From Pseudomonadota bacterium (GTDB lineage: Bacteria > Pseudomonadota > Gammaproteobacteria > Xanthomonadales > Rhodanobacteraceae), in assembly GCA_021805685.1 (NCBI GenBank), contig JAJZET010000093.1:1-64000 (forward strand): DNA of 64,000 bases. Reading direction: 5' to 3'. The translations under genes were made by a program, and so were the position numbers. Under the pieces are notes generated by a model, which saw nothing but the letters and a program-made list of their open reading frames with translations, was not told where the DNA came from and did not search any database. Shown here piece by piece: positions 1 through 4,778 of this stretch. How positions within the stretch are numbered: position 1 is the stretch's first letter; the number at the start of each line of letters is the position of its first letter.

Positions 1-1023
1 GTCCATCAGCGCGCCCGGCGCCACCGGCAGGCGCAAGGTGTCTTCCGGCGCATTCAGCGCGCCGCGGACCGCCCGCTTCAGCAGCACGTCGAGCTTTTGC
101 GGCGCGCGCAGCCGATAGTCGAGAAAGGCCAGCGCGCGGCGGTTGGCCTGGCGGATGTCCTCGTCGAGGCGGCCCAGGTATTCGTCGATGCGCTCCAGTT
201 CGCGCAGCCGGCGCAGGCTGCGTTGCAGGCGCTCCGCCGCGCGCGCGTCGTCGCCGCCGGCGAGGTGTTCGCGGTACCAGCCGAGCAGGCTGTCGTGCAG
301 CGCCGAGCCTTCCACCTGCTGCGCCATCGCAAGGATCGCGCTGCGCCGCGCCAGCGGGTGGTCGGCGCGGTGCAGGTCGGCGTAATCGCCGAGGAAGAAG
401 CTCGACACGTAGCGCTCGAACCACTGCCGCGCGAACTGCGCGGTGGTCTCCGCGCGGCTCAGCTCCGGCATCAGGTCGCGCACCTTGAGGCTCATCGACG
501 ACAGCGACACCAGCAGGCGCCGCGCCTGGTCGGCGGCCTCGTCCAGCGCATCGCCGAAGGCGTGGCCCTCCACCACTTGCCGCAACTGCAGCTCGATCGA
601 GCGCACCTTGGCCGAGACGAAGGTGGGCCCGTGCTCGGCGAACTCCACCAGCGCGGAGAGGAACTGCGCCACCTGCGGCAGCATCGCCACCATCTCGCGC
701 GCGCCGACGCGCTCCTGGCGCAGCCAGCCGCTGGAACGGAAGCGCTCGTAGATCGCGTTCGCGCGTTCGGGCAGCGAGGCGCCGGGCAGGTCGCCCTCCT
801 CGTTCAGCCACGGATCGTCGGTGAGCAGGTAGCGCTCGATCGCGGCAGTGATCTCGCGGCGCGGGAAACCGATGCTGGGCGGCAGCGGCGCGTCCGGCCC
901 GAACAGCTCGTCGAACAGCCGGCACAGCAGGGCCCAGTAGCGCTCGCGGTTGGGGCCGGCCAACGGCGCGAACAGTCCACCCGGCACGACCGCGAACAGG
1001 GGCGGCGCAACATCGGTGCTCAA
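1..1023 (-). CDS. Wadjet JetA-family protein, partial (runs off left edge)
   Basis: Hand translation of the minus strand is open from about 1023 (TTG; in-frame ATG also at 1083) to base 1: STDVAPPLFAVVPGGLFAPLAGPNRERYWALLCRLFDELF...RANAIYERFRSSGWLRQERVGAREMVAMLPQVAQFLSALVEFAEHGPTFVSAKVRSIELQLRQVVEG...SLKVRDLMPEL...FERYVSSFFLGDYADLHRADHPLARRSAIL...RLRELERIDEYLGRLDEDIRQANRRALAFLDYRLRAPQKLDVLLKRAV. Winged-helix-like N-terminus plus helical kleisin-like body as recalled for JetA. Not in the ORF track because there is no stop inside the window. Confidence 0.62.
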   Translation of the reverse strand, partial: MSTDVAPPLFAVVPGGLFAPLAGPNRERYWALLCRLFDELFGPDAPLPPSIGFPRREITAAIERYLLTDDPWLNEEGDLPGASLPERANAIYERFRSSGWLRQERVGAREMVAMLPQVAQFLSALVEFAEHGPTFVSAKVRSIELQLRQVVEGHAFGDALDEAADQARRLLVSLSSMSLKVRDLMPELSRAETTAQFARQWFERYVSSFFLGDYADLHRADHPLARRSAILAMAQQVEGSALHDSLLGWYREHLAGGDDARAAERLQRSLRRLRELERIDEYLGRLDEDIRQANRRALAFLDYRLRAPQKLDVLLKRAVRGALNAPEDTLRLPVAPGALMD

Positions 1024-1158
1024 GCGGGAATCCGTTCGGTCATGTACAGCAGTCTCTGACGATCCACCGGAATTATGCCGCATGGGGCGACGGAAGCTGG
1101 TGGACTGGCAGCCTTGCGCCGCTACCATGCGGCCTTTCCCGAGAGCTCGAAGCGCGCC

Positions 1159-1728
1159 ATGCCCATCGTCCGACTCGCCGACTGCCCTGCCCGGCCGTGG
1201 AAGAACGGCCACGGCCGCACGCGCGAGCTGCTGGTCCATCCCGCGGGCGCGGCGATGGGCGATTTCCTGTGGCGCGTGAGCGTCGCCGAGGTCGAGAGCG
1301 CCGCGCCGTTCTCCGCCTTCCCCGGCGTTGACCGCGTGATCGCGCTGCTGGCCGGCGACGGCTTCACCATGACGATGGACGACGGCACCCGCCACGAGCT
1401 CACCGCTCCCTGCGAGCCGTACGCGTTCCCTGGCGAGATGGGCGTGGCGGTGGCGCTGGCCGGCGGCCCCAGCCGCGACTTCAACCTGATGCTGCGCCGC
1501 GGCCGTGCGCGCGGCCGCATCGAGGTGTGGCGCGCGGCCGGCGAGCATCGCCTCGGCACGGATGTCGTGCTGGTCTGTTGCGCACGCGGCGCGTTCGACT
1601 GCGCGGCCGGCACGGTACGCGCGGACGAATGCTGGCTGCCCGACGGCAACCGCCTCGTGCTGGCCGCGGGCGCCGTCGCGCTCGCCGTGCGCGTGGAGGA
1701 GCTTGCCGCGCCGCCGATGCGTGCGTAA
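1159..1728 (+). CDS. HutD/Ves family protein
   Basis: MPIVRLADCPARPWKNGHGRTRELLVHP...FLWRVSVAEVESAAPFSAFPGVDRVIALLAGDG is typical HutD/Ves; internal start preferred over 1075. Confidence 0.87.
   Translation: MPIVRLADCPARPWKNGHGRTRELLVHPAGAAMGDFLWRVSVAEVESAAPFSAFPGVDRVIALLAGDGFTMTMDDGTRHELTAPCEPYAFPGEMGVAVALAGGPSRDFNLMLRRGRARGRIEVWRAAGEHRLGTDVVLVCCARGAFDCAAGTVRADECWLPDGNRLVLAAGAVALAVRVEELAAPPMRA

Positions 1729-3065: not shown

Positions 3066-4778
<1,713 letters not shown>

What the first reader, a model, noticed from the sequence alone, without database searches (positions are those of the whole stretch)
1..1023. Hidden, truncated Wadjet JetA-like gene at the left edge; a defence locus may lie just outside the window
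Seen: a minus-strand frame open from about 1023 to base 1, missing from the supplied ORF track because it never meets a stop. Its translation has the layout I associate with JetA, the kleisin-like subunit of the SMC-related Wadjet anti-plasmid/anti-phage system: N-terminal LF..PL..nR..Y, a RANA..ER....GWLR winged-helix segment, then helical FVSAKVRSI, LKVRDLMPEL, FERYVSSFF..DY..L...DHPL, IDEYLGRLD. Established: jetA normally precedes jetB, jetC and jetD in one operon. Inference: jetBCD would follow leftward, outside this window.
Basis: partly seen in the sequence, partly recalled or inferred. Interest (0 to 1): 0.8.

Follow-up and report, generated by a model that had tools for sequence, protein, structure and literature searches.

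The report
Truncated Wadjet jetA at contig end
The left edge of the window carries the first two thirds of jetA, the first gene of a well-known bacterial anti-plasmid system (type I Wadjet); it is cut by the end of an assembly contig and its partner genes, present in sister species, fall in an assembly gap here, so the finding is real but ordinary.

Summary
Window 1-1023 on the minus strand is the N-terminal ~341 codons of jetA (PADLOC type I JetA model E 1e-171; Pfam JetA 132 bits, cut-off 26.2), 83-91% identical to JetA of Rhodanobacter species. Base 1 is the end of contig C103 of a fragmented genome (87% complete, 294 contigs), so the contig cannot be extended left. JetB, JetC, JetD and the JetA C-terminus are nowhere else in this assembly. 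Three congeners carry complete jetABCD. A second contig of the same genome (C170) holds the genes that follow the operon in sister species; a single-contig congener has the same site without the operon, and another keeps only a decayed 5' stub of jetA. The predicted gap, about 6.7 kb, fits the end of jetA plus B, C and D. This is a new member of a known kind. In passing: 12 of 36 related loci with a full jetC keep intact jetABC but have no jetD after it, a trait that changed at least seven times on the tree. That is the more interesting lead, and it means that jetD in this genome is likely but not shown.

The parts
1..1023 (-). jetA (type I Wadjet kleisin subunit), first ~341 codons; cut at base 1 by the contig end; about 135-150 C-terminal codons missing
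   Evidence: PADLOC PDLC00456 E 1.1e-171, profile 6-345 of 482; Pfam PF18982 132 bits; orthologues in complete operons; coding GC pattern
1075..1728 (+). hutD-family gene, divergent from jetA: the flank of the insertion site on this side (context, not part of the system)
   Evidence: Pfam PF05962 163 bits; same flank adjoins the empty site in G002 and the decayed site in G008

Best explanation
It is the first gene of a chromosomal type I Wadjet operon (jetABCD) in a Rhodanobacter species, at a site between a hutD gene and a chemoreceptor-mscL block, truncated by a contig break. Shown here: the gene is jetA; in complete relatives it is the first gene of the operon; the site is empty in one congener and decayed in another. 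Inferred from published work on the family: JetA is the kleisin that links two JetC SMC motors with JetB KITE subunits; the complex extrudes DNA loops by ATP hydrolysis; on small circular DNA, completed extrusion activates the JetD Toprim nuclease, which cuts the plasmid. Inferred from synteny: the end of jetA plus jetB, jetC and jetD lie in a gap of about 6.7 kb between contigs C103 and C170.
For: JetA models. Complete jetABCD with type I models for all four subunits in G013 and the same order in G014, G009 and more distant relatives. Contig C170 of the same genome carries the downstream flank of the operon. Empty site in G002 and decayed jetA stub in G008. Mechanism from PMC10586767.
Against: jetB, jetC, jetD and the end of jetA were not found in this genome. 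12 of 36 relatives with full jetC lack jetD. No function was tested. The structure model is too weak to confirm the fold.
Confidence: 0.9

Rival explanations
1. jetABC is present but jetD is missing, so the locus is a nuclease-free SMC complex (MksBEF-like) rather than an armed plasmid-defence system.
For: 12 of 36 relatives with full jetC have jetABC and no jetD; losses are scattered over the tree; one keeps a 37-codon jetD stub.
Against: The closest JetA relatives, G013, G014 and G009 and the other Rhodanobacter and Frateuria loci, all have jetD.
Confidence: 0.1
2. The operon is decaying: jetA is a leftover and jetBCD have been deleted, as in congener G008.
For: G008, 91-92% identical over the flanks, keeps only a ~180-base jetA stub with stop codons. 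The partner genes are not in the assembly.
Against: The window's jetA is open over 341 codons, has a coding GC pattern, and matches intact relatives at 83-91%. A contig break explains the absence.
Confidence: 0.05
3. The C103 contig is contamination from another organism in the sample.
For: The assembly is fragmented, with 2% estimated contamination.
Against: C103 aligns over more than 6 kb with congener G008 at 91-92%, and the other flank on C170 matches the same G008 contig at 92%.
Confidence: 0.02

Closest known systems
Type I Wadjet (JetABCD, also MksBEFG), JetA1 subfamily PADLOC PDLC00456
   Same: Subunit family, gene order jetA-B-C-D in congeners, type I models for all four subunits
   Different: In this genome only part of jetA is assembled; the other subunits are inferred
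jetABCD of Rhodanobacter sp. DHB23 (G013, L010/L027)
   Same: JetA 91% identical; chemoreceptor and mscL flank shared with contig C170
   Different: The hutD-side flank lies on another contig there, so the left neighbourhood differs
MksBEF (nuclease-free MukBEF-like condensin)
   Same: Kleisin, KITE and SMC subunits of the same superfamily; JetB also reaches the Pfam MksE model
   Different: Best models are Jet type I, and the nearest relatives carry the nuclease gene jetD

Membership tests
Wadjet type I | JetA (kleisin-like, DUF5716) homologue | tested here: met
   PDLC00456 E 1.1e-171; PF18982 132 bits, cut-off 26.2
Wadjet type I | JetB (KITE), JetC (SMC ATPase) and JetD (Toprim nuclease) in the same operon | tested here: inconclusive
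   Present in G013, G014 and G009; absent from this assembly, whose contig ends inside jetA
Wadjet type I | Type I rather than II or III subunits | tested here: met
   All JetA matches are JetA1 models; congeneric B, C and D best match JetB1, JetC1 and JetD1
Wadjet type I | JetA fold: N-terminal dimerising winged-helix kleisin | tested here: inconclusive
   Model mean pLDDT 63.7, pTM 0.34; top PDB match is a JetABC chain (8dk2_B) but E = 1.3, not significant
Wadjet type I | Cleavage of small circular plasmids, reduced plasmid transformation | not testable with these tools
   Known for other members (PMC10586767); needs an experiment
MksBEF (nuclease-free) | kleisin, KITE and SMC subunits without a JetD/MksG nuclease | tested here: inconclusive
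   jetD region not assembled; closest relatives have jetD

The most novel reading that the evidence does not exclude
In the Lysobacterales, type I Wadjet repeatedly sheds its nuclease gene jetD while the SMC core JetABC is kept under purifying selection. The locus would alternate between an armed anti-plasmid system and a nuclease-free SMC complex with another role, a present-day example of the proposed route from Wadjet to MksBEF-like complexes.
Probability: 0.35. Interest if true: 0.5.

Novelty: new member of a known kind. Interest (0 to 1): 0.2.

Why it matters
As given, the finding adds one more partial Wadjet locus and explains why an ORF track that requires a stop codon misses it. The comparison has more value: it gives an empty, a decayed and (by inference) an occupied version of one chromosomal site within a genus, and a set of sister lineages with and without the nuclease in which the role of a JetABC core without JetD can be tested.

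Tried and rejected
Extending the contig left: not possible, base 1 is the contig end. JetA C-terminus, JetB, JetC and JetD on other contigs of the genome: none at E <= 1; the same JetD query finds orthologues of 52-54% identity in other genomes, so the search is sensitive enough. Sequence search against PDB, single and profile: only designed coiled coils and other spurious matches. Structure prediction: low confidence; fold comparison not significant. Whether JetB loses a nuclease-contact site in JetD-less lineages: no JetB column conserved with jetD is relaxed without it, and I could not recognise the published IFDR motif (PMC10586767) at the JetB N-terminus of this clade. Whether JetD-less genomes use JetABC in place of canonical Smc: rejected, all 15 genomes tested carry a full-length Smc. 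Contamination of C103: rejected on synteny. No paper in the library mentions both Rhodanobacter and Wadjet.

Full report
What is there. From a TTG at 1023 it runs open through base 1. Open frames are cheap in DNA of 72% GC (the other strand is open over the same stretch), so the frame alone proves nothing. Its codon-position GC of 0.76/0.46/0.93 is that of a coding frame. Its translation matches the PADLOC type I JetA model PDLC00456 at E 1.1e-171 over profile positions 6-345 of 482, and Pfam JetA PF18982 at 132 bits with a cut-off of 26.2. The gene therefore lacks only its last 135-150 codons.

Why it is cut. The window starts at base 1 of contig C103 (68,247 bp) of a genome of 3.07 Mb in 294 contigs, 87% complete. 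The missing part is not elsewhere in the assembly: a full JetA from a congener, and JetB, JetC and JetD from the same operon, find only the piece at the window edge or nothing.

What lies beyond the edge. In G013, G014 and G009 the orthologous jetA (91, 88 and 86% identical) is followed by jetB, jetC and jetD in tight order. The G013 proteins match JetA1, JetB1, JetC1 and JetD1 models with E-values from 2e-97 to 0. After jetD in G013 come chemoreceptor-like genes and then mscL, a fumarylacetoacetate-hydrolase-like gene and an efflux system (names read from the sequence, not from a model search). In the window's own genome that flank is on the 3.6-kb contig C170, which ends inside the start of the chemoreceptor gene. 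In the single-contig genome G002 the hutD side of the window and the chemoreceptor-mscL side of C170 lie next to each other, with 76 bp between the hutD-side match and the chemoreceptor frame and no jet sequence: the empty site. In G008 the same two flanks enclose a ~180-base stub of the jetA 5' end with stop codons; the junction falls at window base 814 and base 817 of the reverse complement of C170: a decayed version. So the Wadjet operon is an accessory module at a defined site. The gap between C103 and C170 should hold about 5.7 kb from the rest of jetA to the end of jetD plus about 0.95 kb of chemoreceptor gene, some 6.7 kb in all (estimate from G013 and G002; inference).

How it works. 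This step rests on published work, not on tests here. [quoted passage not shown] The dimeric motor extrudes DNA loops, and completed extrusion of a small circle is thought to trigger cleavage by JetD, which restricts circular plasmids of up to about 50-100 kb (PMC10586767). The fold of the window's fragment could not be confirmed: the model is weak (mean pLDDT 63.7, pTM 0.34), and its top PDB match, a chain of the P. aeruginosa PA14 JetABC structure, is not significant.

A wider pattern. A scan of one genome per species returned 39 loci, 36 of them with a complete jetC. In 24 jetD follows. In 12 it does not, although the contig continues with other genes that differ between most of the loci. 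A JetD protein search finds nothing in those 12 genomes but does find JetD in three positive controls. Pfam JetD_C finds nothing in 11 of the 12; in the twelfth it finds a different JetD_C protein on another contig, near a second SMC-like frame, probably a separate system. Pseudoxanthomonas mexicana keeps a stub of about 37 jetD codons right after jetC, direct evidence of recent loss. On a tree of JetB plus JetC the presence of jetD changes at least 7 times even if only well-supported branches are used (8 by parsimony; 30 of 500 shuffles are as low, so the trait is only loosely clustered; quick tree). jetA, B and C remain open and constrained where jetD is absent (dN/dS 0.06-0.42 in pairs that both lack it, 0.06-0.25 in pairs that both have it), with the ABC signature and Walker B kept, and every such genome also has a normal Smc. 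[quoted passage not shown] these lineages would be a place to test that. I found no paper in the library that describes this pattern, but the search was small.

Verdict. It is an ordinary, previously described kind of system seen through a contig break.

Noticed in passing
L037, L040, L046, L047, L050, L051, L052, L055, L057, L059, L061, L063 (downstream of jetC): 12 of 36 related Lysobacterales loci keep intact, constrained jetABC but have no jetD; at least 7 independent changes on the JetB+JetC tree, and one locus (L040) keeps a 37-codon jetD stub.
   Followed up: partly
L016:6066-6248 (G008 contig C132): Decayed jetA 5' stub with stop codons at the same chromosomal site; everything from jetA codon ~70 to the mscL-side flank is gone.
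   Followed up: yes
L066:1921-3590 (G002, single-contig genome): Empty version of the site: the hutD-side flank is followed directly by a chemoreceptor gene and mscL, with no jet sequence.
   Followed up: yes
window 3066-4754 (-): NAD-dependent DNA ligase (LigB-like; adenylation and OB domains by Pfam) whose N-terminus looks like a signal peptide by eye; congener G008, otherwise collinear at 91-92%, lacks about 1.1 kb here (the alignment jumps from window 3604 to 4722).
   Followed up: no
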